Below, in pieces: positions 19,101-64,000 of a stretch of DNA of 64,000 nucleotides. A program made the translations under genes and the position numbers. Under the pieces are notes generated by a model. It did not search any database, was not told the origin of the DNA, and saw nothing but the letters and a program-made list of their open reading frames with translations. The stretch is from Chaetoderma sp. LZ-2023a (lineage: Eukaryota; Mollusca; Caudofoveata; Chaetodermatida; Chaetodermatidae): positions 92,265,624-92,329,623 of the forward strand of contig CM067373.1 in NCBI GenBank assembly GCA_034401795.1. Direction: 5' to 3'. Each line of letters starts with the position of its first letter. The stretch's first letter is position 1.

Positions 19101-22100
19101 TAAATTAAGGCCAGTCATTTGACATATTGGCTTGCTATTTGCCCTTTGAAATCACCTTTGTTGACTGTTCCAGTTTTATTTCCGTTTTCTATTGTTCTTT
19201 TATCTTGTAAATGTTTCTCTTCATTTTTTTCTTCAGGATCATATGGCGAATAGGACAGTTATCTGGTTGAGATTTCATGAAAATGATGATTCTGTAATCC
19301 TATCTTCTGCACTATTTTATTAACCCCTACCATTGTCAAAATTTTAAATTTTCAAATTAAATTAAAAGAACTGGTGTTCTTGTCTCAACAGATTTGGTGG
19401 AAGATGTTGCTGTCGTAGATAGCAACATCATCTACCAAACCAAAGTTGTTAAAAAATGTACACCAGTTTCTATTAGTAGGGGTAGAACAGTACCAGTTTT
19501 CCAGGCTATTGGCACATTAAAAGATAGAATATTGACAACAGAGTGTTAAGGGTTAAATCTAATGTGCTTGATGTAAATCTACTGTACCATTTTATTTCGA
19601 AAATCACTTATTGTATAAGCTGCCATTGTAAACTACATGTATGTCAAATACAGTTTCTTCTATGTAAGAGCGTCATATTACTTAGTAGGACTGGTGATTA
19701 AATTGTTGAATATTTTGAGATCGATTGGACTGGGAGATGTTGCTGCATTAGGTGACAACATGTTCCAGTGGTAAAGCTTGCGTATTAAAGGGTTGAATAC
19801 TGTATTATTTGTAAGCTAACAGTGTAAATATCAAATAAAGTTTACTCGAAGTGAGAGGGAGAGAGAGAATCTCATCTTAGGTAATCAGACTGCACTATGT
19901 ATAGTAGATTTGTTGAATATATCGAGTCCAATTTGATTGGAAACTGGTGTTGTTTTGGACAACAATAGATTCCAATTAAATTTGTCAAAATATACTCAAC
20001 AGATTGTTTCTTTAGATTGCAGGTACTTTTGATCTTTATTGCTATTCATTCCTGGATTATTACCCATGCCCTAAGGGGAAAGAGGGTATTATGTGTGTGC
20101 ATGCGTCCGGTATTGCATCTAAAAAACTACTGATCCGATTCATTTAAAATTTTAACACAACAAACCAACATAACCTAAACAAGGGTTTCCAGACTTTGGC
20201 TGTGATCTGTGTGATCATACATAAAGATTTAACAAATTTGGATATGACAAAAACGGTAGGGTGGTCTCGGCGGTGGTTTACAATCTCTGATTACTCCTGT
20301 TCATAATGTTATTTATCAAGCATCAAGTCTTCGACCATGATGGTAAGTAAGTCTTCTTCTTCTTCTTCTTTTCGATCGCTGGTATCACACTTGGAGAGCC
20401 GTTCTCAATATGAAATCTGTGGTTTTCTGCAGTTCTTCCACAGGCCCATACAGCCTTTCAAGAAGAGGTTGACAAAGGCCAGATCTCTTCTCTCAACAGC
20501 TGATACGTACTGCAACATTGAAGTATGTGCTCTGTAGTCTGTTCTGCTTCTCCACAGAGACAAGCGGGCGATGTCGTAAGGTGGAACCGCCTGTACATGT
20601 GTTGGTTTAGTCTGTTGTGTCCAGTTCTGAGGCGAAAAATGGTCACTTGCTCCGGCCTCGAGAGCTGATGGTAGGCATCTTCTGATTGAGGTGTTCTATA
20701 GAGTGACTTGATGATAGTCTTCATCTCTGTATGGGTAACCATGTTTTCTGTCTGATTCTCTTCTGCACCCACCTTTGCCATCTTGTCTGCTTCCTCATTT
20801 CCTTGGACTCCACAGTGTGAGGGGATCCACTGCAATGCTATCCGAAAGCATTTGATGGTTTGTAGTGCTTCTTCAAGTTGTGGCCGCTTACCTTTGGTGA
20901 TAGCCTCAAGGACGGAGTGGGCATCGGATAAAAAGACAATCTGTGCAATAGGGTCTGCTGTTCTGCTGATGGTATTAGCTGCATGAACCAGTGCTTCGAC
21001 TTCAGCTCTGTAGTTTGTGCAGTGTTTGCCCGTCGGTATTGCAGCTGACTCATGTTGTCCGTTTGGATACTGTATGTGTAGTCCGGCACCTCCGCTCCTA
21101 ATTGCATCTTTGGCTGATCCATCTGTGTAGATCCTTATCCATGTCTCCTGAGGGTACATTTCTTCCAGCATGGCTAGGGTCAGGGCCTTCTTGCTCACAT
21201 CACTGTGTTCATCTTTGGTTGTGAGATGAGGTACTGTGGTGTGAATAGCTATGCTCTCTAGTTTGTTTTCCCAGGGTGGAGGATCAAGCGTGTGGTTTGG
21301 GTCTTCTATTTGTGCTGGCAACATTTCTTGGTGTTTCCTTTGAAGTGCTTTTGTCTCTTTCACAAAACTTGATCTTTTAAGTCTTCCTGATGACAGCTGT
21401 GCTTGCCTGATCTTCATCGGGTGGTTGCTGAACGATTTGAACGTTGCAGCTTGGATCAGTGCTTTGCATTCCCTTCCTTTGCTAAGTGGGGGGATGCCTG
21501 CTGTCTGCTCCATTTTTTCTATTGGTGTTGATCTCATTCCACCAGTGATGATGCGCAGTGCCTGGTTTTGTACTCTGTCGAGGTTCTGTTGATGAGATTT
21601 AGCTGCTGTCATCCATGAGCTGGATCCATACTCAAGGTGTGGTCATACGGCACCTAGGTAGATGGTCTTGAGGATCCTTTCATTGGCACCCCACTTTGTT
21701 CCTGCCAGCTTCCTCATGATGTTTAGCTTTCTTCTGGCCTTTGCCTCTGTATGTGCTCCTTCCATGTTAACCTTCTGTCGTAGGTGACTCCCAGGTATGT
21801 CTGCTGGTCCTCGTACTCGAGTGGAGTACCGCCCAGTGTCAGATTGCCAACCTTGGTTTTGGTGGGCAGCGAGAATAGCATGGCTGATGATTTTTCTTTG
21901 TTGATGGTAATACACCAGCGATTGGCCCTAGCTGTAATTCTGTCCAAGGCGAGCTGCATTCTGAACGTGGCAGTCGTTGTGTACTCCTCGGTGCACCAGA
22001 GTACGAGGTCATCTGCATAGAGGGCTGCTTGGATCCCATTGGGCAGCTCTGCTACAATGTCATTAATGAAGCGTATGAACAGAGTTGGTGATAATACTCC

Positions 22101-25100
22101 GCCTTGTGGCACCCCTTGTCTCAGCAATACATTCTGTCCTGATTGTCCATCCACCAGCACTCTAGCTCTGCGATTGTGTAGGTACGACTTGGTCCATCGG
22201 AACATGTTGCCACCGATGCCTGTGCGCCGGAGCTTCACGAGGAGGCCATCCTTTCACACCTTGTCAAATTCCTTCTGCAGATCGATAAAGGCAGCTAGCA
22301 TCACCTTCTTGGCTTGAAAAGTGTCCTCTATGACTTGTGCAAGATGTGTTGTTTGATCTTCTGTGCTCCTGTATCTTCTGAAGCCGGCCTGCTCTGAAAC
22401 TATAATGTTCTCCGACTCCAGGTACCACTGCAATCGCTGGTTGATGATGCGCTCCATGGTCTTGCATATGCAGCTTGTAAGACTGATAGGACGGTAGCTC
22501 AGCACTTTCGTCTCGTTCTTCCCTTTTTTCAGAATAGGAGTCATTCTGGCTTCCTTCCAGCACTGAGGAACCTCTCCATTGGTCCAACTGAGATTAAAGA
22601 TGTCTAGCAACTTGCGGAGAGATACATTACCAAGGTGTTGGATCATTTCATTCGTAATGCCATCTGGCCCGGGAGATTTCTTCTTCTTCAATTGGCAGAT
22701 AGCCTTCTTAAGTTCTGCTAAACTAATGTCAACTTTCATTGCATCGTGAGTGTTGGTGTCTGTTCTTTCCTTTTGCTCTTTCCAAACCTCTTTTTGACGC
22801 ATCCGTTGTATATAAATGTTGCTTTCTTTTGCATATGCCTTCGCAAAGGCATCTGCAACCATCTTTCCTGTCAGTGTTTGTCCATCTTCTTCAAGAGTAA
22901 TCTTCTCTCCCCTGACACCCTCATCATTCAGTGCTTTAGTCAGTCTCCATAGCTTTGTGGTGTCTCTCTCTAAATTAAACTATGCCGTCTTTTCCCTCCA
23001 GCTTCTTCATTTGGCCTCCAGCTTCTTCTTTTGGCCTCCAGCTTGGTCTTTAGATACCTGGCTTTAGTTTGTTGTAGCGTGAAGTGGTTTTCATGACAGG
23101 GGTTACCCTCTGCATCTTCTCTGGCCTTGTCTAGTTTATCATGTGCTGCTTGCAGTTCTGTTGTCCAGTAGGGGCGGTAGTTTTTCCTGAACCTTCGAGG
23201 AATCGCTTCGTTGGCAGCCTTGAGGATACTTGAATTAAATTCCTTGACCACATTGTTGATGTTTCTCCCTTCTACTGCTATATTTTGTGTAAGCTCACTG
23301 GAACGAATGCCGAACAGACTCCAATTTGCCTTTTTGTAGTTCCACCTTGGATGTTGAGGTGTACTTGTCGAAATACTTCCAGAAAGAGAGAGGATGACTG
23401 GGCGGTGGTCGCTTCCTCCTAACTGCGATCCGACCACTCTACTGAGGTTTCTGTGAATGTCTTCTGTACAAAATTCCAAGTCCGGCGTTGTTGTCGAGTG
23501 CCACTGGCGTGAGTAGAAGGTAGGCTGATCTGTGGGATCGTTGACAAGTAAAAGGTGCTTTTCATCTTGCCATGCTTCAATGTCTTCTCGTTTATCAAGT
23601 GTTCTGTATCCCCAGCTCTGGGACTGGCTATTAAAGTCTCCCACAATGAGGAAGTGGCAGTCCAGGACCTGGATTGTGTCAAGTGAGAGAATCTTGTCAT
23701 AAAGGGCAAGTAAGTGATAACTAGATTCCTTGGTCGATGACGCATTATAGAAAACCCCCATGCTCACCACTTTGACCTCTTTACCCATCCCATCCCTGGG
23801 GGCGTATCCTCTGCACTCCATAATCACATAACAAATTTGTTTGAATTAGTTTCATTACACAGCGACTGGAGTGGATTGTTGTGAAAAATCTGGATGTCAT
23901 CAGAGGAAGTGATCTATGAGAGCAGGAGTTAAAATTAACATGAGCCAGAGGCTAGTAGAAATTGACCAGGGTTAGTACAATGACCAGCCCAATGGTAACA
24001 ATTTCATTTGTCAACCCTTTAATGGTCATGGTGGCCAAAGAATGCCTCTGCTGTGATCTTAAGAAATGTTGATTAGCAGAGCAAGACTTTTTGAAAATTT
24101 ACCACTAGAATGCTCGGTAATTGAGCCAGTCATTCCAGTTGTAAAATTTCAAAAATAGTCTTCCCTTGGTCTGTATAGAAAATTTGAAGGGCTAAAGTAG
24201 AATCTAGTAATCACCAGTCCTATCTGAACGTAATGGCTCATTTGGCTTAATTTCAATTCATGGAGAGGGTGTCAACTGGTGTGCGAGAGTGGTCTATGAA
24301 AAATCCAGAAATCTAGATAAATCTGGAAGACTCCAATCTCTGCTTACAATAAATTTCTTGACCTTTTAACCCCTTCTCCAACCCAAAGAAATAAATGTCA
24401 GGCAATCCACAATTATATGGGCAACCCACACACCAAATTTTTTTGAATTCCACACAACAGTTTGGGAGTAAAGTATGAGACATTTTTTTTGGATATTTGA
24501 ACTTTGGACTACACACCCTGACCTCCAGTGGGCGGGGCCAAATCTAAATGTTGTCTTGCAAAGCGCAATCATATGGGTAACCGCCATACCAAATTTGGTT
24601 GAAATTGACCCAATTGTTTGGGAGGAGATAGCATGATGGATGTACAGATAAGTGGATGGAGGCAATTATATCCTCATTTTTTCAAAACATGGAGATAATG
24701 AATGGACTCAAGGAGACAAGGTAGGTATGGGGATAATGAATGGACTCAGAGACAAGCTAGGTAGGTATAATCATACTAAAATGTAACTTTCTTTCGGATT
24801 GAGAAATTAGGCTACAACCATCATTTGCCATGCCACATTGTTTTCAGGACTTGTCATGAAAGAGTTAAACATAGTAAAAACTGGAATTGACAAAAGGAAG
24901 GACAAAGCAGAATTTTGATTTTCTAATGGATGGATCTACTTTTAGCTATGCCCCGCCCATCTCTACATATGCTCCATCGATGATTTGCGCGTGTTGGGAT
25001 AAATTTCTATACTTTGAATCCTGAATTCCAAATTTCATAGTAACCATAGATACCGCTAACCTGGTGAATATTTTGAAACCAATTTCAAGTACTTTGATTT

Positions 25101-28100: not shown

Positions 28101-31100
28101 AAAAATCTGAATAGAGGTTCTAGAGCATACCTCCGTATGATCGTTCTAGCTAGATTTGATTGAAATCTGCAAAGAAACTAAGGAGAAGATCCATTTTGAC
28201 ACTTTCAGGTAAATTTGCAACAAAATCTAAGTTTTTTACCCAAAAAATTGAAATATCAAAAATTTGAATAGAATTTCTAGAGCCTAGACACTTCTAGCCA
28301 AATTTGGTTGAAATTTGTGGACGGACGACGGACGGTCGCCACGGCAAAACCTCACTTGACCTTTCAGGCCAGGTGAGCTAACAATGGTCACAGTAAAAAA
28401 ATTGGATGAGGAAATGCAAGAATATTGATATCATTGCCATTATAGACCACTGGGAATGGTACGATTGATCAATGGGTCAGACATCCCTGACATTATTCAC
28501 CAGCAGATGACATTTACCAATGAGGAAATGCAAGAATATTCGTGTCTGATTGACTTTATTGAATAATGGGAAAGGTAGGACTGTAGGATTGATCAATGGG
28601 GCAGCCATACCTTACATTATTGACACAGCAGATGACATTTACCAACGGGTCAATGGTCACAGTAAAAAATGTTGATGAAGAAATGCAGGAATACTGGTGT
28701 CATTGACATTATTTAGCAATGGGAAAAGTACCATTGATCAAGGGGGCAGCCATCACAGACACTAGTGATCAATAGTTCAATTGTCACAACACTGACATTT
28801 CCCAAAGGGGCAATGGTAAGGTCACAGTAACAAATATGGATGGGGAAATGCAAGAATATTTGCATGATTGACCAACAGGAAGAGTGCCATTAATTAATGG
28901 GGCAGCCATCCCTGACTCTATTGTCCTTTGATTGAAGTGTACTAAAGGAACATTTCTGATAAATCTTGTTTTAGTCCATTACCAATTTACGAAACGCGAC
29001 ACAGATTATTTTCCCCATAGGGTTTAATACTTAAAATGCTTTGAAGAGCCAGTTATGCCCCTTATTTCAAGTCGTGGCTATTGCCTGAAGGAACATATCT
29101 GCTAAATTTGTTTATAATCCATCAACAATTGACAAAACAAATGTATTTTAACCAAAGAGTTCAATAGTTTCAAGTCTTAATGAACCAGACTTATAGCCCT
29201 TGTTTAAAGGTGAAGCCTCTTTATATTCATAGTTCAAATAGATATTTGACTGAAGAAACAAATCTGCTAAATTTGATTTTAATCCATTAACAATTGATGA
29301 AACAATTGGATGTTCACCATAGGGTTCAATAGTTTAAGACTTAATGAACCAGAATTATGGCCCTTGTTTAAAGATGCATACTCTTTACATCCATAGTTCA
29401 AACAGATATTTGACTGAAGGAACATATCTGCTAAATTTGATTTTAATCTATCAACAATTGGCGAAAACATGTATTTTCCCCAAAAATATGGCTCAATACT
29501 TAAAAAGACCTCAATGAATGTGAGTTATGGCCCTTGTTTCTGGGCGTGGTCACTTCATGTCCATAGCTCCAATAGATGTTGCCTAAAGGAACATATCCAC
29601 AAAATTTAGTTGGAATCCATCAATAAATGACGAAACGTGCAACAAACGTATTTTCCCCATATGCTTCAATACTTTGAAAATATAGCAAGGGACATAACTC
29701 TGCTGTTTGCGGGCGTAGCCACTTCATATTCGTAGCCCAAATAGATATTGCCTAAAGGAATATATTTGCCAAATTGGGTTTTAATCCATCAATAAATCAC
29801 GAGACGTGTCACAAATGTATTTTCCCCATAGGCTACAATGCCTAATAACGCATTAATAAACCAGAGTTATGGCCCGTGTTTAAGGGTTTGGCCACTTCAT
29901 CCTTATAGTGGGGCGGATATGTAACAAATTTGAGGTAAGATGTTCCATTCTGGCAGAAAGCATGAAATTTGGCATGTAGGTGGTTTAAGGTATGCTGAAC
30001 ATATTTAAATGCGGTGCCACATGATTCCACCAAGGGAACCCATTCAAAATGGCGGATTCAAAATGGCCGCCTTCCCTGCAGAAAATCTGCGTTACTCAAG
30101 TTCTAGATGGAGTAGAGGGCTGGAATTGATGTCAAATTAAGGGTTTCTTGGGTCACTGGTTATGATTTTACCCATTACATTACTCTAAATAGATAAACAT
30201 GCTGAAAAAATATATTATTATTATTATTATTGTTGTTGTTGTTGTTGTTGTTGTTGTGGTCATTCTTGTAACATTTGTAAATTAGTAGTATTATTGCTAA
30301 ACGTTTGTACACACATGCTCCGGGCGGAACATTTTAGAAACAAGTTTTCGCTACTCAAAACAATTGGTCTACACATTTTCTCCAGTAAAAGTAATTGTAT
30401 GCCAGCCCCTCGCTTCACCAAGCATTATTTCGTTGCGGATTTCCATATAATTATTGCAGTTTCCTAAACTCACACTGACTATTTAAATATATCAGGAGAA
30501 TACATAGCTATTCTGAAGGGTGATGGTGGAATTATCGGAATCACAGAAAATGAAGCTGCTTTGAAATGATGGATGGTGTCAGGCCCAGAAATAGGAAGGA
30601 TGATCAGCGAGTACGAAGTGAAACATACACACAGAAATATCAATGATAACTGTCACCATGAGCAGATTCCGAGTAAGCAGAAATTGTTTGCTTTAAACAC
30701 AATTTGTTTTATTGATCCAATCGAGGAAATGGGAAACCCATTTTTAGATGACAGTTTTGACTTAGTGACTCTAGATACCAAAGTCATTATGTCCGAGTCT
30801 GTAGTGAATGTGATCCGAAAAGCAGAAGAACTAGGCATCAGACAGTACCATGCATTCGTCGCAGATCGACTATCTGTATCATCAAAATCGGTATACGACC
30901 CAATCCAAAAGAACAATTTGGCTTTGTTCAAATCAAAACAGAGGAAGAGTACCAGAACCAACAAGAAGCTTGCTGCAATGAAGAGAGATGCACAGTTATT
31001 CTCTAGACTGTACATTTCCTGCCAATCCAGAGACGGAGACCTTGATTCATTCTTTGAGCATGAGAATCATCCATGGCCCCCATCACTTGCTGAGAGCAAC

Positions 31101-34100
31101 GCAATGCGCCAAGGCAGCAAATCAGATCTGATGGGATGTTTGGAAGCATTAGTAGCTCGTGCAGCTGATTGTCCAGAGGTTGAAGTGAAGATCATTGACG
31201 GAGCAGCTATGATGCATAATCTAGAGCCCAAGAAATCAAACGTGGTTGTGAACACATTTGGAGATTTTGCAGAGCACGTCTTCCTCCCACACATTGCTAG
31301 ACAACTTCAGACGGTTAAAAGATTGGATGTTGTATGGGGCGTGTATAAGGCGGGAAGATTGAAGACACACGCTAGAGAATTACGGGGACATGGTGAAGCT
31401 CTTCGTGTTGCATCAAGTACAAGACTCCCTCAAAATTGGAAAACTTTCCTACGAGTTCATGCAAACAAAACAGGCCTCTTCACCTTTCTTGCACATACAT
31501 TGGAGTCATTCGAGCTACCAGAAGGAAAGATACTCATCACAACATGTGAGGAAAACATGCTGATGAGGCCAGAGCATGATGTCTCACAACTCGCGCCATG
31601 CATGCAAGATGAAGCAGATGGTAGAATGTTGCTCCACGCCTTCCATGCATATCACCAAGGTTATCGAACAATAATGATTCATGCTACAGATACAGACGTC
31701 GTAGTCCTAGCCATACAGACAGCAAACCTTTTTCATGGGTGTTATCTCTGCGTCGCATTTGGCCATGGGAAGACCATCCGCTATGTATCAGCTCATGGCA
31801 TTGCAACAGTTTTGGGTGCAGAAGCGTCACAAGGACTGCTATTTATGCATGCTTTCTCTGGGTGTGACAGCATTTTGTGGGATTGGCAAGAAGACAGCAT
31901 GGGAAGTTTGGAGGACTTCAGATCTATTCAAGTCGCTATTTAGGAGACTGTCTGATGGCCCGGCGTCTCTGTGTGAAAATGACATGGAAACGCTGGAGAG
32001 GTTTGTCGTACTACTGTACAATCGCACATCACCATTGTCAAAGGTTAATGAGGCACGAAAACGGCTTTTCGCTTTTGGCAACAGGCAGCTAGAAAACATT
32101 CCTCCGACCAGTGCAGCTCTGCTGCAACACACCAAATGTGCTGCGTTTCAGGCAGGTCATCTTTGGGGCCAATCACTCTACGCAAATGCAAAAACGCCAT
32201 CGCCAGCTGACTGGGGTTGGATCAGAGATGGAGACACTTGATCACCGCAATGGAGTTTGCTTGCAGACGCATCTAAGGCATGCCAAAAACTCGTGAAATG
32301 TGCTTGCAAAAGTAATTGCACTGCCAGATGCAAATGCTATAAATCCACTTTACCTTGTACACAGTTGTGCTCATGCGGCGCACAGTGCGTGTGACGTCTG
32401 TGAATCATGATTCAACAATCAACAGCATTGCATACTCTAATAGGATAATTGAACATATCTATAATGACCATTACTTGGTTCGATATTAAGAAATCAAGTA
32501 ATTTAAACTATTTCTAGATGCTATATTGCTTTTGTTCTCAAGAGATAGATCTTTTAGATAACACATCTTAAAGAGCCACCGTCTTTTGACATCAAACACA
32601 GGTGGTCGCTATGGAAAGATTGATATTTACATATTTAGAGTATTGTAGTGAGCAAAATTATAACGATTGACCCATGAAACCCTTAATTTGACATTAATCC
32701 CATCTCTCTACTCCGTCTAGAGCTCGAGTAATGCAAATTTTCCGCTGGGAAGGCGGCCATTTTGAATCCGCCATTTTGAATGGGTTCCCTTGGTAGAATC
32801 ACATGGCACCGCATCTAATTATGATCAGGATACCGTAAACCACCTATATGCCAAATTTCATGCTTTCTGCCAGAATGGAACATCTTTTTCACATATCTGC
32901 CCTACTATTATGGCCAAAATAGACATTGCCTAAAGGAACATGTCTGCTAAATTTGGTTTTAATCAATTGATAAATGACGAAACGTGCCACAAAGGTATTT
33001 TCCCCATAGGCTTCAACTTTGAAAATATAGCCAGGGCCATAACGCTGCTATTTTTGGGCAGAGCCACTTCGTCTTCATAGCCCAATAGATATTGCCTAAA
33101 AGAAAACATTTCTCAAATTTGGTTTTAATCTGTTGATAGATGGCGAAATGTGTCACAAACATATTTTCCCCATAAGCTTCAATACTTTGAAAATACAGCA
33201 AGAGCTATAACTCTGCTTTTTGTGGGCGTGGCCTCTTTATCTTGAAAGCCCAAATAGATATTGCCAAAAGGAATGTGCCAAATTTGGTTTTAATCAATCA
33301 AGAAATGGCGAAACATGCCATAATTGTGGACAGACGACAGACAGACGAATTACGATTGGATAAGCTCACCTAGGCAAGCTAAAAATCCAATATGGCCACC
33401 AATCACGCTACATTTAGATTGGTCCACTGCAGACATTTTTTTATATACCAATTTCCCATGAACACATTTTAATGGTCCTTAATCATATCGATACCGATAT
33501 TATAACTGATATCATGCATTGATGGTTTCAAAACTGCTTATAAAATATAAATATTGAAAGACCGAATATGAACATATTTTCGTTTTTTCCTATTATCATT
33601 GTTAAAAATGAAAGATACTAACCAGCAACAATCGTGAAAAGCTCAATGAGTAATGATTGATGCCTGAGACATGTTTTTCTGGGCAATATATACATCGTTT
33701 AAGCCGCTTCTGCTGATCATTCCATTTCTGTTTTCTTATTGGCCAGCACGACAAAATTTATCCAAGCACTATTTGAAGAATAATTTTTCTCCCTATGAAT
33801 AAACATTGTTTATCTAATCACGTCGTGCTGACACTATGATCTTTGCCGCAATGAATGGTTATACACATATGATGTTAAATATCTGACACATGCTTGATAC
33901 TGTTCTTTCTTCTTCTTTTCGTTCGCTGATCATACCGCCAGTCCTGTAAGTGACTATCGACATGATACTGTTGAAATCGGGAATATCTTTTTTGCCTCAT
34001 TGTGTCTAAAATAGATTTCTTCAACTAGCATGTGACTTTAACAGAACTATAATAACAACCGAGTTACGTGATCAATCTACTTAGAAAAGAATTCTGACAT

Positions 34101-37100
34101 GTATTGGTTGACCTTCTCCCGGAACTCACGGAAGTTTGCTCGAAGATGCACATTCTTAGTCTCGAAAGATCTCATACACCAGAGAGAGAGAGAGAGAAAC
34201 TTGGGTTAAGTTTGGATATGTTATCGAGGTACTCTGATCAAAGGTATCACGTCATTGGTTTACCTGTCTATGCATGCATGCATGCACTTTTACTCTCACT
34301 TGAAGCAGGAATAATCAAGTAGATTTGTACCATGTGATACCGTTATCCGATTATACTCTCGGGCGTTTGGATATCCAATCGGGATAAGTGGGGTACCTCG
34401 ATAACATATCAGAACTTAGCCTATGATCGGATCGGATCTAAAGTACAGTAATCGGCCACCATTTCATAGATAGTAATTTCAGAGTTCCAAGACCAAACCA
34501 CATGAGTACTCAGCTACTCGCTATGAATACCGGAAAAAATCTTTCTAATATCATGTGATTTGCATTTTTTCACGACGAGCTGAAATGTCAAATTGTATAT
34601 TAATTTTTATGTAATAAACGATGGTTATTACAGTATACATAATATTTAGGTGGTCCCAGATAATAGGTTCGGTCCCGCAACGATGGGCATGGGGTATATT
34701 AAGCATATGTGTAAGGCGACAAGAATTTGTACCGGTATAGTGTTCTATTTTCGCTTTAACAACAATAGTTTTTTAACCGTTTTAGAGAATGGATTTCAAC
34801 TTTTTCTTAACATATACCTAACAGAAGTCACCCATAAAACCGATATTCGGTTAAAACCGATATGAAGTCATATTGAAACCGATATGGTTGTATGCCAAAC
34901 CGGGCAGCCCTAATGGAGCATAAGTGAGATTTGTGAGTTGTAATGCACTCCAAGCCGATAAACTCCTGATGATCACGACTGACACACGTCAAAGACAAAA
35001 CTCAACAAGAACTCAGCAAACGGCGCCTAATACTGTGCCATGATGACAAACCAATGAATGAGAACTATCAGAATATCTTCCTCAGACCGAGATCAGTCAG
35101 TCATCCTATTAAGTGCTAAAGCGATCCGTTAAATGGTCAAGGAGTTATCGTCCGGAAACCAATTTTCAAGATGGCCATCAGTGGCTGGTGACCATCTTGG
35201 ATTTCGGATCATCGTCGATTTCCCCAAACCTAGTCCAACTACCCTATGAAGTTTCAGTGATCCGTTAAATGGTTCAGGTGTTATCAGTTTCAAGATGCCA
35301 CCGGTGGTGGGCAACATCTTGGATTTCGGATCATTGTCACTTTCAATAGGTTTCTTCCCCAGACCTTCTTCCAACCACCCTCCGAAATATCAAAGCCATC
35401 CTATAAACGGTTAAGGAGTTATCATCAGGAAAACAATTTTCAAGATGGCAGCCTGTATTTGCTGGCCATCTTGGAGTTCGGGTAATAGTCAATTCTGATA
35501 GGTTTCTTTCCCTGCCCTAGTCCAACCACCCTCTGAAATTTCAAAGCGATCCAATAAACGGTAACAGAGTTATCATCCTGAAACCAATTTTCAAGATGGC
35601 CAATGGTGGCTGGTGGCCATCTTGAATTTCAGATCATTGTAAATTTTGATAGGATTCTTCCCCAGACCTAGTCCAACCACGCTATGAAGTTTCAATGCGA
35701 TCCGATAAATGGTTCAGCAGTTATCATTAGGAAACCGGTTTTCAAGTTGGCCGCCGGTGGCTGGTCGCCATCTTGGATTTTGGATCATTGCAGATTTCGA
35801 TAGGTTCTTCCCCAAACCTAGTCGAGTTATCAACCGGAAACCAATTTTCAAGATGGCCAATGGTGGCGTGCAGCCATCTTGAATTTCAAATCATTGTCAA
35901 TTTCGATACGTTTCTTCTTCAGACCTAGTCCAAGCATGCCATGAAGTTTCAAAAGCGATCCGATAAATGGTTAAGGAGTTATCATTCAGAAACCAATTTT
36001 CAAGATGGCCACCGCTGGCTAGCGGCCATCATGGATTTTAGATCATTGTCGATTTCAATAGGTTTCTTCCCCAGACCTAGTCCAACCACACCCTCAAGTT
36101 TCAAAGCGATCCGATAAACGGTAACGGAGTTATCATCCGGAAACCAATTTGAAGATGGCCACCGGTGGCTGGCGGCCATCTTTGATTTCGATTCATTGTT
36201 GTTTTCGACAGGTTTCTTCCCCAGACCTAGTCCAACCACGTTCTGAAATTTCAAAGCGATCTGACAAATGGCAACGGAGTTATCATCTGTAAACCAATTT
36301 TCAAGATGGCCACCGGTGGCTGGTGGCCATTTTGGATTTCGGATCATCTTCGTTTTCGATAGGTTTCTTCCCCAGACCAAGTCTAACCACCCTATGAAGT
36401 TTCAAAGCGATCAGACAAACAGCCACGTGCCCACCTGCCCGAACCGGGCCATTGCATAATAAACCCCAATTTATTTGGCGGAGTATAAAAAGAGATGTGC
36501 AGAGCTGTCTACCCAGTCAAACTACACAGTCACATGTGACAACTGTGATGAGACCTATGTGGATGAGACTGGTGGAGCATTAGGGTTGACGGTCAAAGAA
36601 CAAAAGATCAGAGCATCATTTACAATATACGATCAATGCATAATAATTCTGCATTGCTGCTTTTGTCATATCACCTGACATTGGTTTAAATGCTTGATAC
36701 TAAACATGCATATTAGACATATGTGACAAACACTCATACGTAGTGGAAAGTTGCTTTGCTTCTTTAATTCTACCTTAGTATCTGAAAACGCAAGTAACCA
36801 GGGAACACACTTCACTATTTTCAGAAAACTCCTCCACAAGGACAAAAGTAGGGACAATCTGCCACAATACAGTAATCCAGTGGAACTAGACAATCATTTT
36901 GGAAACTCTTTAAAGAAATTAAAGTTGATTCATGCTAGAAACATCCTACAGCTGCAATTAGTCCTTCTTCGCTTTTGACCACTGTGTCTTGTCCTCAGCA
37001 AAAATCTCTAGTTTCCTCAGGTCCATTCTTTATTTGACTGTACCGCAAGACCACTGTAGAGGCCAGCCTGACCTGAATAGGTGTCTGCAATAATCCACAA

Positions 37101-47844: not shown

Positions 47845-48872
47845 ATGGCAAGACGAAGGTTAAGTGATCGTGTGAAATGGCAAATCATAGGCATGCATAC
47901 CACTGGTATGTCATGCAGAGAGATTGGCAGACAGCTGAACATTAACCATACTGTAATCAGTCGTTTGATTGCAAAACATGGGCAAACTAACGAGGTGAAG
48001 GACAGGCCTAGATCTGGAAGACCGAAGAAGACTACTGCCCGTGATGATCGAGCCCTAGTACGCCTTGTTAGGAGATCTCCATTCACCAACAGCAGAGTGC
48101 TCAGCCAGCAATGGGAAACGCGCAATAGAGTGTCAATGTCTACCGTCAAAAGGAGACTGTATGCTGCTGGCATGAAAGCTAGGAGACCTGTCAGACGTCC
48201 TCTCCTCACTGCACACCACAAAGAGGAGCGTCTGAGGTGGTGCAACGAAAGAAGACACTGGAACATGAGATCCTGGAGACGGGTACACTGGTCCGATGAA
48301 AGTCGGTTCCTGCTTCATGCCACAGATGGTCGAACTCGTGTATGGAGGACCAGACGCACGGCGTACGACCAACGTAACATCATGGAAGAAGTTCCATTTG
48401 GTGGAGGTTCCGTTATGATATGGGGGTGCATATCATTTGATTGTAAGCTGGATCTGTTGACTGTACCTGGAACACTAAATGGACAAAGATATCAAGATTC
48501 CATACTGGATAGAGTTGTGGTCCCTCATTTTGTAAATCATGCACCTGGAACCCACCCTATATTCATGGATGACAACGCCCGACCACATCGTGCTAGAGCT
48601 GTGCATGAATACCTCCGCCAGAATGCCATCGAAACCCTACCATGGCCAGCAAGGAGCCCTGACATGAACCCTATTGAGCATATCTGGGACATTCTGGGAA
48701 ACATGGTGAGAAGGAGGGATCCTCTCCTGTGCAGAACCTACAGGAATTAACAGACGCACTCCATCTTGAATGGCAACGAATACCACAATGGCGTATCAGT
48801 CGGTTGGTGACCAGCATGAGACGTCGTGTCCAGGCCGTCATCCAGGCACAAGGTGGATATACCCGGTATTAA
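47845..48872 (+). pseudogene. Tc1-like transposase, one frameshift
   Basis: Cut-and-paste transposase of the DD34E class. The N-terminus has two helix-turn-helix regions (about residues 15-45, REIGRQLNINHTVISRLIAK, and 65-110) separated by a GRPKK AT-hook-like motif at 58-62. Catalytic residues visible: Asp151 (HWSDESRF), Asp243 (MDDNARPHRA) and Glu278 (PDMNPIEHIWD), with 34 residues between the last two. The first frame stops after 301 residues (48750). A single-base loss near 48725 moves the frame, and the expected C-terminus (LQELTDALHLEWQRIPQ..., ending QGGYTRY) continues to TAA at 48870-48872. The total would be about 342 residues, the normal Tc1 length. Confidence 0.9.
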
Positions 48873-49194: not shown

Positions 49195-51436
49195 TATATA
49201 TACACCTGTTAATTTTTTGAATATCGATAAGGCGAGAGGATTAATGGTGTCACAGAGATAATGGTCGGTAAAGCTTGACTCACAGTGCTACTGAGCTACT
49301 GACATAATATCATCCACCTGAGCCCCATTAAACTGGGCGGTGGAAGCCACTCTCACGGACACTGTGAGCCCTGGCCATGTCAACTTGTTTACCAGTGACG
49401 GATCTGTGACAAAACTGGATGCATTCCACAATCCACCTTGAAATAGTGTCTTTTGACGCCTGCCCGGCCATGGGGTTCAATATATGACAACCATAACGAC
49501 GTTGGGCCCATCCGCCATTCCTGAGTAAGTTGTTTGTACTGGTTTAATACGCGGACTGGATACCAAGCTTTTGAAGTAGGATCATATCTAGTCAAAGCTG
49601 GGAAAATAATAGGTTGACCCGGGTATTTCAAAGACTGATTCTTAGCCATGAAATTAATCCTAGGTAGAGGCCTAAAGCCTTCCCCTGTAACCACATAAGT
49701 CTGCCTCGGCGAACAAGGCATGAATTTTGCTTTTCCACCTGGCGGAGCCTGCAGCAATTAAAAATACAATTTTAAGTGTCAACAGTTTCATTGAAATGGA
49801 ACTTAGTGGTTCAAAGGGTTTATCAGCTAGAACTTGAAGAACTAGAGATAAAACCCAAGACAGAATCGCTGGTGGATTTCTCAGTCTTGATTACCCATGC
49901 CTTTAATTTAAGTATTTAATGTACTTACTTCGTCACTTCCCCCCATTAGCCAAGCAAGGAATAACAGACATTAAAGCTGACTTGTAGCCAGCAATAGAGT
50001 TACATGTAAGCTTGAGGCTATAGGCATCATACAGGTGACAGAGGAAATCCATTGGATTAATACATCTTTTTGAGCACCATTCTGCAAATCTGTTGATTTT
50101 ATAATTATATGCTCTGGATGTTGACTGCCCTCTGGCTTTTGCCATAAACATGGCAGTTTGCCCAAAAAATCCCTCCTTAATTGCAGATTCCTTGATCCAC
50201 GCAGTCAATTGGAACATTGACGGACTACTGTGAAGGGACTTGCCCGGGAAGATAATATTGTGCATCAGAGGCAGAGGAACCGAATTGCAGACCAGAAGGT
50301 CCAGCCGATCCGTATACCATGATCGGCGTGGCCAATTTGAGGCAATCAGAAGCACTTGACACTCCTGTCTGATTTTCTAAAGAATTTTTTTGAATCAGGA
50401 TTGCCGGCATGTATGCGTATGCATACATTCCCTTCCAGCTGATAGCTAGCGCATCCGTTGCGATAGCGCTCAGAGGTGGAATCGGAGAGACATACATGGT
50501 CATCTTCGCATACTTCTTCGTTGCGAATAAATCTATGTTGGGTTTCCCCCAGTGGTTGAACAGACGATCCGCCACACCTTGATTTAGTTTCGATTCCATA
50601 GGCAAAACACTCATCCTTCGGCTCAGTGAGTCTGCTAGCAGATTTAGCCTTCCCAGAATATGAACTGCTGTCAAGGTGATCATGTGACCTATGCACCAGC
50701 AAGGCCGTTTCCATGTCATCATACAGAGATTTGGCGACTTCATTCCGCCCCGGCGGTTTATGTAAGTCACTACTGTTGAGTTGTCTGATCGAACTAGAAC
50801 TATCTGGCCCTGAATTTTCTCCACGAAATGTTCCAGGCCTAGAATCACTGACCATGATTCTAGCAGATTGATATGTTCCTGTGACTGATCCAGATTCCAA
50901 AGCCCTGATACAGTGGCTTCTTCCAGGCAAGCTCCCCATCCCTCCATTGATGCATCTGTATACATCGTTATTGCAGGTGGGGAGATTCTCCCTCCTCATC
51001 CACCATTGGGGGTGCCGAATAAGAGGTTCCAACACTGACACCTTTGAGTCCAGTGATTCTATACTCTGGGTCCACTGTGTCATGAGAAATAACTGGATAG
51101 GCCGCCTGCGTAGGGTCGCCTGTGGAATGACTGGTTCCAAAGAAACCATCAACCAGAGCATTCTCAAGTAAACCCATGCTAGCACATGACGGCTGTTGCA
51201 CACTGACTGTATTACTGAGATGAGTATTTCTACTCCCTCCCGAGTAGGATAAACATATCCATCTCTAGATCGAAGCACGTGCCCAGGTAAACAAACTTCT
51301 GGGATGGAGTCAGCTCTGATTTCTGAAGGTTTATCATCCAGCCTAAGTCTGTGAGAGTTTTCAAAACTATCTGCTGATAGACTTTCCTGAGTGTGTGCTT
51401 TTAACAGCCAGTCATCTATGTAAGTGTGGACTGCTA

Positions 51437-52885
51437 TAGGGCTTTGCGGTAAACTGGTATTGGAACCGTCACCGGTTTTGTAGATGTGCCGGTTCAAAAA
51501 CCGGTGTCATTATCTCATAACCGCATATTTGTGAAGAACTGGTTTTGGGAATATATCTTTTTAAATAGTATGTTTGCATTGCATAAAATTGAATCCATGT
51601 GGCTAATTGTTATAAAAGATTCGCTAAATAAACCATGGAAGAGGGTTCTTTTTCATTTGTATATCACGAGAATGTTGCTAGATTGTATTGCTACGTACGT
51701 TCAGAAATTGTAATCTGCTAGCGTTTTATTAACTTCTATGATACACATTTGAAAGTGTATAATAAGCAATCTAGTGTTTCTGATAGCTATGTTTATTATG
51801 AATTCTGAACGCGCATCGGGGACTCTAAACCGGGAAGTGATATAACCTGCCAACGTAAGTTGAGATCGAATTTGTCTAATAGGTTGGGCAATCAAGAGTA
51901 ATTTCTCATGAAAAATCATGAGCTAGCTCAACGTATGTTGGACGATAAAATTAACACTCGATGAGGGTCGATATACATTATTAGTGCCAGAAAACAACTT
52001 TTACAGCTACACAGTTTAAGTCCTTCCAAATTGCGATTATGATCTATATCAAAATAAGTCTGATTTCCTTTTCCGCGGAAAATGTATGCTAGTAAATAGT
52101 CTAAATGGCTGAGTTTGATTATACGTATCTGATTAATTGGATCAATAAATTAGATTTACTACACATGTGCATGCGTATACGACAGGCAGATTTGTACCAC
52201 ATTACAGTATTATGTCTATAAATAAATTCGGCCTAAGCGTGTGTAAACGTAGGCTATCAGGATACATTTGCATAATGCTTCTCATCTGACTGGTCTCCGA
52301 AATGGAGTCTGTGTAACAATCTAATTAGGTCCGCCATCTTTCAGAATTTATCACCGGCTCTTCGTTTCCATGACGCAAAATGACTAACTATCGAGTAGTA
52401 TTTTTAGCGAATGCTGTACAAATTTTCAAACTGTAGTTTGAAGTCATCCAAAACATATATTTGTAGTGTCCACTCCATGAACTGCTTGAATTGGTCGCTG
52501 AAAGCCACAGTAAATTTGGCAATGTATCTGTCTACTCGTTATCCTAGAGGGGGGTATACGAATTGCTAATTGTCTAGGAATCTGATATATGACTGACATT
52601 GCACAAGAACTCGAAATGACATCACGATCAAGTTAAAAGCGCAAAATCTAATGTTTTAAAGCAATTTAAGCAATGATTTCACTCTCTCCCCTAAAATTGC
52701 ATCGGATACTATGGCTACAGATTTAAGTCTATTGTTAACACATTCTATTTTCGTGGTATTGCAAATTTCTTTTTTTCCACGAAGAATAAAAACATTTACA
52801 GCCAATAAACTGGATATCCGGTTAAAACCGATTTCATGGCCAACACTGTCACTGGTTGTATTTTTACCAAAACCACACAGCCCTC
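51437..52885. mobile_element. Non-autonomous hAT element, 1,449 bp
   Basis: The 8-bp duplication GACTGCTA is at 51429-51436 and 52886-52893. TIRs are (T/G)AGGGCT(T/G)TG(C/T)GGT. No transposase ORF. It lies in the RT region of the DIRS-like fossil, opposite other hAT-like ends at 34.9 kb and 56.4 kb. Confidence 0.75.
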
Positions 52886-54119
52886 GACTGCTATGCTTCT
52901 TCTGCGGAGGTATGCTGTGATAGCAAGGACCACCTTGGCAAAAACCTGGAGCTGTGGAAATTCCAAAGGGTAGAACCCTGAATTCCCAGACGGCCATGAA
53001 ACGTGAATCTCAGGAACCGGCGAAAACTCCTCGCAATAGGAATGTGGAAGTAAGCATCCTTGAGATCTATTGATGCTGTCCACATCCCCTTCTGCAACCC
53101 TGCCAATACCATTTTGATCGTTTCCATCTTGAAACTTGGTGTGTCTATGAACTTGTTCAATGGCTTGAGGCTGAGAATTGGTCTCCACCCTCCAGTGCTT
53201 TTTGTCACTAGAAACATGGTTGAATAGAAGCCCGGGCAATTTTGTGCCAGTTGAATTGCTCCTTTTTGTATGAGGGAATTTATTTCCTCCTCGATACGCA
53301 ACCGTTGATCTGGATCGCTTGGATTTGGAGTCCAGATCGGGACCAGAGACAGATGCGATGGCAGTCCTTTTATCCAGTCGGGACGGTACCTGACTGAAAG
53401 CCATCGGAATCGCTCCCACTCTTGCTTGTGAAGGGTCAAGCGACCCTTCCCCCCCCCACCCACAGGTCCACCTAGGGAGAGCGGTGGACATCAGCAATGC
53501 AAGAGTGGCACTGTCTCTGGTTTTAGATGCCCTGGAATGGTCGCTGTGGTAACCGGCCCATTAGGCACGGTTACTACATCCAGATCATCGTGTGCCACAG
53601 CCCGCGCTGGGTGGCTGTCTGCCTGGCCTGTGCTGGCGTGGCCACTGCCTATGCTGCATCAGTGGCACCATAACACCATGCCTCTCCACCATAATATAAA
53701 TGGGACCACAGGGCAGAATGAAAGCTCACTCTTACTGGAGCCTAAATCACTCTGGGCAGACTTTTTTCCTAACATTCTTTTAGGGAAAATGGTGGAGACA
53801 AACCCTCTTACATGTGACCAAACTTCATGACAGCAACCTGTGGAAACAAAAATAAAGACAGATTAGTATATCATGGCGCCAAAATAAGATTTCACCAGTT
53901 TTCTAGGTGCCTATCACGTCTAACGCCCCTCACGGAAACACATAACAACATGCAACAATGACGAAAATTAGACAAAAATGTAATAGAATTCACCTTGATC
54001 CTGCCGCATCCTCAGGTGATTTAGTTTGATCAGACATCTTTTAAGCAACTCTACTAAAATTTGTGATGGAGTACAAGCAAAAATTAGCTTCACTAAGAAG
54101 AATTAGAGCATGTGTTCTT

Positions 54120-59739: not shown

Positions 59740-61341
59740 TACCTTCCGTTTTTCGTCTAGAAAAATCTTGATACACTCCTTTGTTTGCAATCAGCAACTG
59801 GCGTATTCTGTCCATGTATGTATACCCATGTGCCTAACCCATAATCTTACAATCTGCAGTAGCATAATAACGTTCTCTAAGCAGCATTGACGTAGTTAAT
59901 ATAGTTCATGATTAATCGTATGATCGCGATTATTTTTCTTAAATGATCGCAATTATGAAAAGTGAATAATCGTGCAACCCTACCATTAGGGTTAAGCAAT
60001 CCAGAAATATAACATGATAAGATTTGCTGAGGCTAAAAACATAACATTGAACAATAACAAAGTTTGTAGAGGTGAGAACGAGCTTGACCTCTGATGTTGC
60101 GACTTCAGTGTCAGCATACTGCTTCCTAACATTATAGGTAACAATGTATCTAACTTTAGTTCCAATAGGCTCAAACAACCATGAAATATAAGCTAAGAAG
60201 TTTTGCTACGCAAAAACTTAATATTGAAATAACAGAGTTCTGTATCAAGGTCACAGTGACATTGATGTTTGACCTTGTGGACCCCAACATTATCATGCTG
60301 CTTCCTAACATTATAGGTAACCATGTATCCAAGTTCAGTTGCAATAGGCTTAACCAATCATGAAATATAAGCTGAGAAGTTTTGCCAAATGCAAAAACTT
60401 AATGTTGAAATAAGAGTTCTGTATCAAGGTCATTGTGACCTTGACCATTGACCTTGTGATCCCAACATCATCATGCCGCTTCCTATCATCATAGGTAACA
60501 TTGTAGCCAAGTTTAATTGCAATAGGCTTAACCAATCCTGAAATCTAAGCTGAAAAGTTTTGCTAAATGCAAAAACTTAATGTCGAAAAGGCAGAGTTCT
60601 GTATTAAGGTCACAGTGACCTTGACCTTTGACCTTGTGACCCCAATATCATCATGCTGCTTCCTAACATCATAGGTAACCATGTACCCAAGTTCAGTTGC
60701 AATAGGCTTAACCAAACTTGAAATATAAGCTGAGAAGTTTTGCTAAACGCAAAAACAATGTTGAAATAACAGAGTTCTGTATCAAGGTCACAGTGACCTT
60801 GACCTTTGACCTTGTGACACCCACATCATCATGCTGCTTCCTATCATTATAGGTAACCATGTATTCAAGTTTAGTTACAATAGGCTTAATCAATCCTGAA
60901 ATATAAGCTGAGAATTTTGCAAAAGGTAAAAACTTAATGTTGAAATAACAGAGTTCGGTATCAAGGTTACAGTAACCTTGACCTTTGACCTTGTGACCCC
61001 AACATCATCAAGTTGCTTCCTATCATTATCGGTAACCATGTATCCAAGTTTAGTTGCAATAGGCTAAACCAATCCTGAAATATAAGCTGAGAAGTTTTGC
61101 TAAACACAGAACCTTAATGTTGACGCCGTAGTCGCCATCGGAAAAGTAATACCTATGTCTCACTTTCTGCTTCGCAGGCGAGACAAAGAATGACCAATCA
61201 AAATTCTGTATACAAATTCTGAAGCCTACGCCTATAGGGTCCATCCAGCCAAATTAGGTTGAAATACGCCAAGCGGTTAATGAGGAGTAGCATTTTTAAA
61301 CAAAGGTTGACGGATGGATGACGGATGACAGACAGTAGCCA

Positions 61342-61977: not shown

Positions 61978-64000
61978 TACACCACAAAAACATCCATTAC
62001 CATTCAATCACTACTTGCTAAACCCGTAGATTTGGTCAGTGCCCCATTTAAACATTAGGTGGGAGGAGATTTGAGAATCAACAAACAAGGATAAAAATTG
62101 AACCAATCTTGTCCAAAAGTTAATAACATAACATAGTAGTGCATTTAACTCAATCACACCGTGATTAACAAATAAGGAAAACTTGAACTTAAAGAAATAA
62201 ATAAAAACCAAAAGAAGACTCACCATTTCTCACAGATGCACAGTCCTAACGAAAATGGTGGAAAGTGCTTGGTAAATGGTCTTCAGCTTTTTTAGTTAAA
62301 ATAGTAATGTTACGAAAGAAGAAGGCTGCTGCACTCTGGTCTTTGAGATAAAACGATGTAAAAGTGGATTCAGATTTCCATCCTGCCACCTGCATGACCT
62401 CATCTAAAGACAAACCGTTAAAAGAGTGAAAGAAGTAGCCATACCTCTAACGCATGGGCTTTAATCTGGGAGAGATTAATTTGATCCGGTGAGGCTATCT
62501 CATAACAAAGCTTAATTGTCTCACAAATCCATCTGGCAATCATAGATTTTGAGACTGGCTTAGATAACTCTTCCGCGTAGGGAACCCATAAATGGGATGG
62601 ATAGACTCTTTAAAATCGGTTCGCTGTTTGCAAGTTCTTAATGCCCTAAAAGGACACCCAAATTTATCGGATAGCGAAAAAGACGATACATATTTCAAAA
62701 TGATCGGACTAGCAGGAAAGCGGTTAGACCGAGTTTTAGATAAAAAGTCCCTTCTGGGATATAAAACCAAACCGTCTCCTGAAACTATAAATCTATCCTT
62801 TTCAGCAGAAAGAGCATGAATCTCTGAACGCCTTCTAGCAGAGGCAGTAGCAACAAGAAAAACAGCCTTGAGAGTTAAAAGCTTAATACTGATAGAAGAA
62901 ATAGGTTCAAAATGGCGACCTGCCAAAACTTGAAGAACCAAAGCCAAATTCCAGGAAGGTAAAGGCTTAGCAATCGGAGGACGAATATTACCTAGACCTC
63001 TAATAAAACTATTAAGAGTCTTAGTATCCTTGACATCAGCATTCAGAAGACAAGGAAGGGAAGATGCCAGAGAAAATCTATATCCCCTGACCGTATTAGC
63101 TGACAAATGTAAAGAATCAAACAGATAGGATAAAAAAATCTAATACTTGTGGAATAGAAACAGAATCGGGCACGAAACCTTGGTCTGAAAAACACTCACA
63201 AAATTTTTTTTAAGTCGACCCTTGTAAACTCGACAGGTCGATTCCATTCTGGCAGAGTCAATAATCTCCTGAGATCTTGAAGAAGCCCTATTCTCGAGGA
63301 CCTCAGACTCGAGATTCTCCAAACGCACAGATTGAAAATTTCTAGATTTGGATGCACACAAAGACCTCTTACTTGAGATAGAAGATCTTGGGATACTGGA
63401 AGAAGACGAGGGAAGTCCACCAGAAGATCTAGAAGGTCTATAAACCAAATCCTCTTGGGCCAAAAGGGAGCTATCAGAAGAACCTCGCAATCTTGGTCCT
63501 TGACCTTCTTCAAGACTAATGGAATCAAATTGTTGGAGGGAAGGAATAGGTGAACATTCCTGTCCAGGACTAAGACAGAGCATCCACCGCCAGGGCCTGA
63601 CTGTCCGGAAAAGGAGACATGTAAGAGGAGATCTGGGCATTCAGAAAGGTCGCGAATAGATCTACTAGAGGACGATCCATAGGACTGAAAAACGCTCCGA
63701 CAACCGACTTCTTTAACTGCCACTCTGTGTGGGCGAACTTGCTGGGACGTGCCAGTTGGTCCGCCAGAAAATTCAGACTGCATGGGACATGGGAGGACAC
63801 TAGAAAAATCTGCCTTTTGCGGCACCACAAGAGAAGATTCCACACTTCTAGACAAAGGAGAGACGACCTTGTACCTCTCTGCCTGTTGATATAAGACACC
63901 ACTGTTGAATTGTCCGACCGAATCGAGACTTTGAGACCTATCACAAGATCTGACCATGAAAGGAGAGCCTTCTTGACAGCCCACAACTCCAGAATGTTGA
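61497..64000 (-). mobile_element. Second DIRS-like fossil, runs off the right edge
   Basis: Minus strand. A tyrosine-recombinase remnant lies at about 62.5-63.1 kb and an RNase H region (with the RSDNSTVVSYINRQ and FLADQLARP blocks) at about 63.2-64.0 kb. To the left, an ~85-bp inverted repeat (61497-61585 versus 61895-61977) fits the end repeat plus internal complementary region. At least two or three breaks are visible in the part present. It is a different subfamily from the fossil at 46.7-54.3 kb. Confidence 0.7.

What the first reader, a model, noticed from the sequence alone, without database searches (positions are those of the whole stretch)
29906..32907. TIR element whose only gene encodes a predicted XPG/FEN1-fold nuclease
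Seen: ~290-bp inverted repeats, a 3-bp TTA duplication, clean rejoining of a 165-bp tandem unit when the 3,005 bp are removed, and one gene between the repeats. Known: FEN1/XPG nucleases use acidic residues in an IDG/A block, a VWD.Y-like block, an E-A-D/E block, a TxDxD block and a GCD block, and these appear here in that order. Inference: a PIN-type nuclease, not a DDE enzyme, is associated with this transposon class and might act in its mobility. I know of related uncharacterised multi-copy proteins in invertebrates but not of a named TIR superfamily built on them.
Basis: partly seen in the sequence, partly recalled or inferred. Interest (0 to 1): 0.88.

Follow-up and report, generated by a model that had tools for sequence, protein, structure and literature searches.

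The report
Decayed, probably Academ-type transposon copy
This is a broken "jumping gene" copy that keeps what looks like the nuclease part of its protein, most likely an old, shortened member of an already named transposon group (Academ), rather than a new kind of mobile element.

Summary
A 3,002-bp element (29906-32907) has terminal inverted repeats of 295 and 285 bp (251 of 285 aligned bases identical) and a TTA duplication; removing 3,005 bp rejoins a tandem unit gap-free against 2 of 6 neighbouring stretches. The single coding region is broken: in-frame TGA at 30567, a frameshift near 31870, TGA at 32239, and Gly where the second XPG-type Asp is expected.

The XPG/FEN1 reading rests on motif order plus a GIGKKTAW block. 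Pfam, PDB and two single-sequence AlphaFold models gave no support, and the profile score is weak.

The inference of a nuclease-only class without a DDE enzyme is not supported: this copy is short and dead, and a named superfamily fits. Academ has two lineages told apart by helicase or nuclease; AcademX makes 3- or 4-bp duplications (PMC10045372, passage). Curated bivalve Academ elements average 5,565 bp and carry DDE/D ORFs (PMC10294476, passages).

Most likely this is a dead, internally shortened AcademX-type copy. No Academ sequence could be compared, so membership is inferred.

The parts
29903..29905 (.). left target-site duplication TTA
29906..30200 (+). left terminal inverted repeat (295 bp, 5'-TAGTGGGGC...)
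30042..30067 (+). two direct copies of ATTCAAAATGGC 14 bp apart inside the left TIR; candidate transposase-binding site (inference)
   Evidence: in the 64-kb window the exact 12-mer occurs only here and, inverted, in the right TIR
30489..31868 (+). first part of the coding region in one frame (in-frame TGA at 30567-30569; ATG ORF 30573-31943), with acidic blocks IIDGAA, VVWGVY, DEADGR, TDTD, GCD; the start at 30489 is approximate and was chosen by recalled relatives
31866..31880 (+). frameshift zone between GCD (frame of 30573) and AFCGIGKKTAW (frame of 31735)
31870..32394 (+). second part of the coding region in the +1 frame: GIGKKTAW helix-hairpin-like block, in-frame TGA 32239-32241, then Cys-rich tail (10 Cys in 50 aa) to stop 32392-32394
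32623..32907 (-). right terminal inverted repeat (285 bp)
32756..32781 (-). inverted counterpart of the paired 12-mer in the right TIR
32908..32910 (.). right target-site duplication TTA

Best explanation
A decayed and internally shortened copy of an AcademX-type (Academ superfamily) cut-and-paste DNA transposon, inserted into a tandem repeat. Shown here: long TIRs, 3-bp TTA duplication, single insertion into a tandem unit, one protein-coding region with XPG-like motif order and a Cys-rich tail, several disabling lesions. Inferred: the intact relative also encodes a DDD/E transposase, probably upstream in the same protein, which binds the ~290-bp TIRs (perhaps at the paired ATTCAAAATGGC) and makes 3-bp staggered cuts. 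The C-terminal XPG-like nuclease would trim or open DNA structures made during excision or repair. This copy has lost the DDE part and was last moved before that loss, or afterwards in trans.
For: TIR, TSD and empty site. Motif order and spacing resemble FEN1: residues at aa 209, 256, 347/349, 373/375 and 432, against motif starts at 24, 78, 152, 171 and 234 in P. furiosus FEN1. A C-terminal-half pattern (written after seeing the sequence) fits FEN1 and the window protein once its two frames are joined, and 0 of 200,000 shuffles. The best local profile match of the joined protein to FEN1 puts FSGCDS..AFCGIGKKTAWEVW on [23 protein letters not shown]. AcademX has 3- or 4-bp TSDs, and the text relates the TSD difference between the two Academ lineages to their different enzymes, helicase and nuclease (PMC10045372, passage). 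A bivalve survey curated 100 Academ elements with TIRs, TSDs and DDE/D ORFs, mean length 5,565 bp (PMC10294476, passages) against 3,002 bp here. Only 372 bp lie between the left TIR and the ORF's ATG.
Against: No Academ protein or TIR sequence was available, so kinship is untested. That X in AcademX means XPG, and that Academ proteins carry a Cys-rich finger, is recalled; the primary paper (Kojima 2020) is not held. XPG homology is not statistically secure: hhalign P 0.059 with 10 of 200 shuffles at least as good for the joined protein; P 0.033 and 2 of 200 for the +1-frame ORF; the first ORF alone matched a wrong place with P 0.76; the global alignment was meaningless, P 0.73. The C-terminal-half pattern is in no single frame of the window: 0 hits in 1,006,550 residues of six-frame translation of the window and 53 loci. 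No Pfam or PDB match. The host was not identified; that it is a bivalve is a guess. TTA duplications also fit PIF/Harbinger (recalled).
Confidence: 0.6

Rival explanations
1. A nuclease-only TIR transposon class: the XPG-like protein itself, without any DDE enzyme, is the transposase.
For: The only coding region recognised between the TIRs is this one; no DDE-like Pfam match in the pieces scanned.
Against: The copy is broken and short, so what it lacks is uninformative; no clear start of the coding region was found; a known superfamily with a nuclease-encoding lineage is classed as DDD/E.
Confidence: 0.12
2. A non-autonomous element of another known DDE superfamily with 3-bp duplications (for example PIF/Harbinger) that captured a fragment of a nuclease-encoding gene.
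For: TTA duplication also fits Harbinger (recalled); non-autonomous elements can capture host sequence (recalled).
Against: Long TIRs of ~290 bp beginning TAGTGGGGC do not resemble the short Harbinger ends I recall; the coding region (about 1.9 of 3.0 kb) resembles multi-copy invertebrate proteins as I recall them, not a single-copy host gene.
Confidence: 0.13
3. The protein is a transposon protein but not an XPG/PIN nuclease; the acidic blocks are a coincidence or belong to a DDE-like fold.
For: No Pfam, PDB or structure-model support; weak hhalign scores, 10 of 200 shuffles as good; second Asp is Gly.
Against: Order and spacing of the blocks and the GIGKKTAW block coincide with FEN1.
Confidence: 0.15

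Closest known systems
Academ superfamily, lineage AcademX (Academ: Kapitonov and Jurka 2010, seen as a citation; lineages: Kojima 2020, seen as a citation)
   Same: 3-4 bp target duplication and encoded nuclease (PMC10045372, passage); TIRs (PMC10294476, passages)
   Different: Curated bivalve Academ elements are longer (mean 5,565 bp) and carry a DDE/D ORF; this copy is 3,002 bp, has no recognised DDE and is broken
AcademH
   Same: Same superfamily
   Different: Encodes a helicase, 9-10 bp duplications; neither is seen here
FEN1/XPG structure-specific nucleases
   Same: Order of acidic blocks and GIG-K-A helix-hairpin block
   Different: No significant overall sequence match; second Asp is Gly here; sits in a transposon
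PIF/Harbinger
   Same: 3-bp TTA duplication (Harbinger side recalled)
   Different: TIR length and sequence (Harbinger side recalled); no Harbinger transposase or Myb-like gene recognised

Membership tests
Academ (AcademX) | 3- or 4-bp target-site duplication | tested here: met
   TTA on both sides with a rejoined tandem unit
Academ (AcademX) | terminal inverted repeats | tested here: met
   295/285 bp, 251 of 285 aligned bases identical
Academ (AcademX) | encodes a nuclease (XPG type, recalled) | tested here: inconclusive
   motif order and helix-hairpin block; no Pfam/PDB hit, weak profile score
Academ (AcademX) | DDD/E transposase domain in the element | tested here: inconclusive
   none recognised in the pieces scanned; the copy is short and broken, so absence does not exclude
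Academ (AcademX) | protein groups with Academ proteins in a tree | not testable with these tools
   no Academ sequences, no eukaryote collection, host genome not held
FEN1/XPG nucleases | acidic blocks in order plus helix-hairpin block | tested here: inconclusive
   all blocks in order but second Asp replaced by Gly; helix-hairpin block only in the shifted frame
FEN1/XPG nucleases | profile match or fold match | tested here: inconclusive
   Pfam, PDB none; hhalign P 0.059 joined, 0.033 for the +1-frame ORF; models of pLDDT 34.1 and 32.9 not usable
PIF/Harbinger | Harbinger transposase gene | tested here: inconclusive
   no Pfam match in the reading frames tested; a non-autonomous copy would lack it anyway

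The most novel reading that the evidence does not exclude
A TIR transposon group in which an XPG/FEN1-fold nuclease, without a DDE enzyme, carries out transposition, with this copy as a dead member.
Probability: 0.1. Interest if true: 0.85.

Novelty: new member of a known kind. Interest (0 to 1): 0.25.

Why it matters
As an ordinary Academ-type copy it adds one datum: ~290-bp TIRs, a TTA target and a nuclease-like C-terminal half plus Cys-rich tail. What the nuclease does in Academ transposition, and whether it explains the 3-4 bp against 9-10 bp duplications of the two Academ lineages (PMC10045372 suggests a relation), is an open and testable question. If full-length relatives proved to lack a DDE domain, it would be a new transposition chemistry.

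Tried and rejected
Relatives were sought where they were unlikely to be, because no eukaryote collection is open: IMG/VR with the first ORF (no pattern match), with motif patterns (1 stretch: 23: 17: 2: 0) and with a guide alignment (128 stretches, 0 relatives); GTDB genomes with the guide alignment (51 stretches, 0 relatives) and a pattern (7 stretches); phages by protein with the first ORF (no match). Of the 53 loci fetched, 50 were compared with the two ORFs by tblastn and gave only short or chance-level matches; the other 3 (L049-L051) were only read for a FEN1 motif. A family search with XPG_I in the record of one locus found nothing (0 of 1). Absence here says nothing about animals.

XPG fold: two AlphaFold jobs on single sequences failed, so no fold search was run. 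A first five-block regular expression matched neither the window protein nor FEN1 because of how it was written; only the C-terminal-half pattern is used. A pattern for FEN1 in viral contigs brought 3 stretches: two carry nearly the same long ORF that looks to me like an RNA-phage polymerase, one a short ORF; none was usable. The first shuffle control for hhalign failed to parse and was redone. A profile of the guide alignment A1 found nothing XPG-like in PDB (2 hits, E 0.37 and 2) or Pfam (2 unrelated weak hits, none for the window row). The Cys-rich tail alone has no Pfam match.

Rejected: the idea that the 3-bp duplication is chance, since the tandem unit rejoins without gaps against two stretches. 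A script with an off-by-one right boundary was corrected.

Full report
Observation. The element is real and the coordinates are exact. The left TIR begins at 29906 (TAGTGGGGC), the right TIR ends at 32907 and TTA flanks both sides. The TIRs are 295 and 285 bp with 251 of 285 aligned bases identical and 10 gap positions. Removing 3,005 bp restores a ~165-bp tandem unit: 2 of 6 neighbouring stretches align without gaps over 122 and 109 columns across the junction; the other 4 alignments contain gaps. In a scan of 289 breakpoint pairs the two best remove exactly 3,005 bp, shifted 2-3 bp from the TTA; the third best removes 3,007 bp; the TTA boundaries score slightly lower (574 against 599). Inside each TIR lies a pair of ATTCAAAATGGC 14 bp apart; in the 64 kb the exact 12-mer occurs only at these two places.

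The gene. One coding region runs from about 30489 (a start chosen by recalled relatives) to 32394 on the + strand. It is broken. There is a TGA at 30567-30569 in frame with the ATG ORF, a change of frame between GCD (31866-31868) and AFCGIGKKTAW (from 31870), and a TGA at 32239-32241, after which the same frame continues with a tail holding 10 Cys in 50 residues. In the second acidic block the expected Asp is Gly (VVWGVY, aa 256). With TIRs about 12% apart, this is an old, inactive copy (inference).

Is it XPG-like? The GCD plus GIGKKTAW stretch aligns to the FEN1 helix-hairpin block as the best local profile match. But the score is weak: P 0.059 with 10 of 200 shuffles as good for the joined protein, P 0.033 with 2 of 200 for the +1-frame ORF; the first ORF alone aligns in a wrong place (P 0.76) and the global alignment is meaningless. 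Pfam, PDB and two single-sequence AlphaFold runs (pLDDT 34.1 and 32.9) give no support. A pattern for the C-terminal half, written after seeing the sequence, fits FEN1 and the joined window protein and 0 of 200,000 shuffles; it fits no single frame of the window or the 53 loci (0 hits in 1,006,550 residues), since in the window the frameshift lies inside it. I hold XPG-like as probable, not shown.

What it is. Academ is listed among the superfamilies with a DDD/E transposase (PMC9587614, passage) and is a Repbase superfamily (PMC4455052, passages). [quoted passage not shown] A bivalve survey curated 100 Academ consensus elements with TIRs, duplications and DDE/D ORFs, mean 5,565 bp (PMC10294476, passages). 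From memory only: the AcademX nuclease is of XPG type, a Cys-rich finger is typical, and many invertebrate genomes hold multi-copy proteins like this one that extend further upstream. The element here has the 3-bp duplication, the TIRs and a nuclease-like C-terminal half, and is about 2.5 kb shorter than the bivalve mean. The simplest account is a shortened, decayed AcademX-type copy without its DDE part.

How it works (inferred). The DDD/E transposase of an intact relative binds the TIRs and cuts with a 3-bp stagger at TTA. The nuclease acts on flaps or hairpins at donor or target. The copy here can hardly make either enzyme.

Limits. The host genome is not held and no animal collection could be searched; the searches made covered viral, phage and prokaryote data and found no relative. 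Kinship with Academ is therefore an inference from architecture and literature. Literature searches used for the Academ/XPG link; papers were opened by passages only, and none of the eight opened was shown to name XPG together with Academ. No claim is made that the link is not in print; I recall that it is.

Verdict. Observation confirmed; interpretation partly supported; most likely a new, dead member of a known kind.

Noticed in passing
47845-48750 (+): Tc1-like transposase ORF of 301 aa: HTH_Tnp_Tc3_2 E 3.5e-17 and DDE_3 E 1e-11.
   Followed up: partly
20458-23827 (-): Fragments of a non-LTR-like retrotransposon in four ORFs: endonuclease, reverse transcriptase in two pieces, RNase H.
   Followed up: partly
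49389-53497 and 62540-63986 (-): Pieces that look DIRS/Ngaro-like to me; a reverse transcriptase match only in 52894-53463 (E 7.6e-08); the three other ORFs of these stretches that were tested had no Pfam match, the rest were not tested.
   Followed up: partly
59987-61123: Tandem array of a ~179-bp unit whose consensus holds TGACCTTGACCTTTGACCTTGTGACCCCA.
   Followed up: no
35288-36420: Tandem array of ~150-bp units with AAGATGGCC motifs, reminiscent of the AAAATGGCCGCC stretch in the element's TIR.
   Followed up: no
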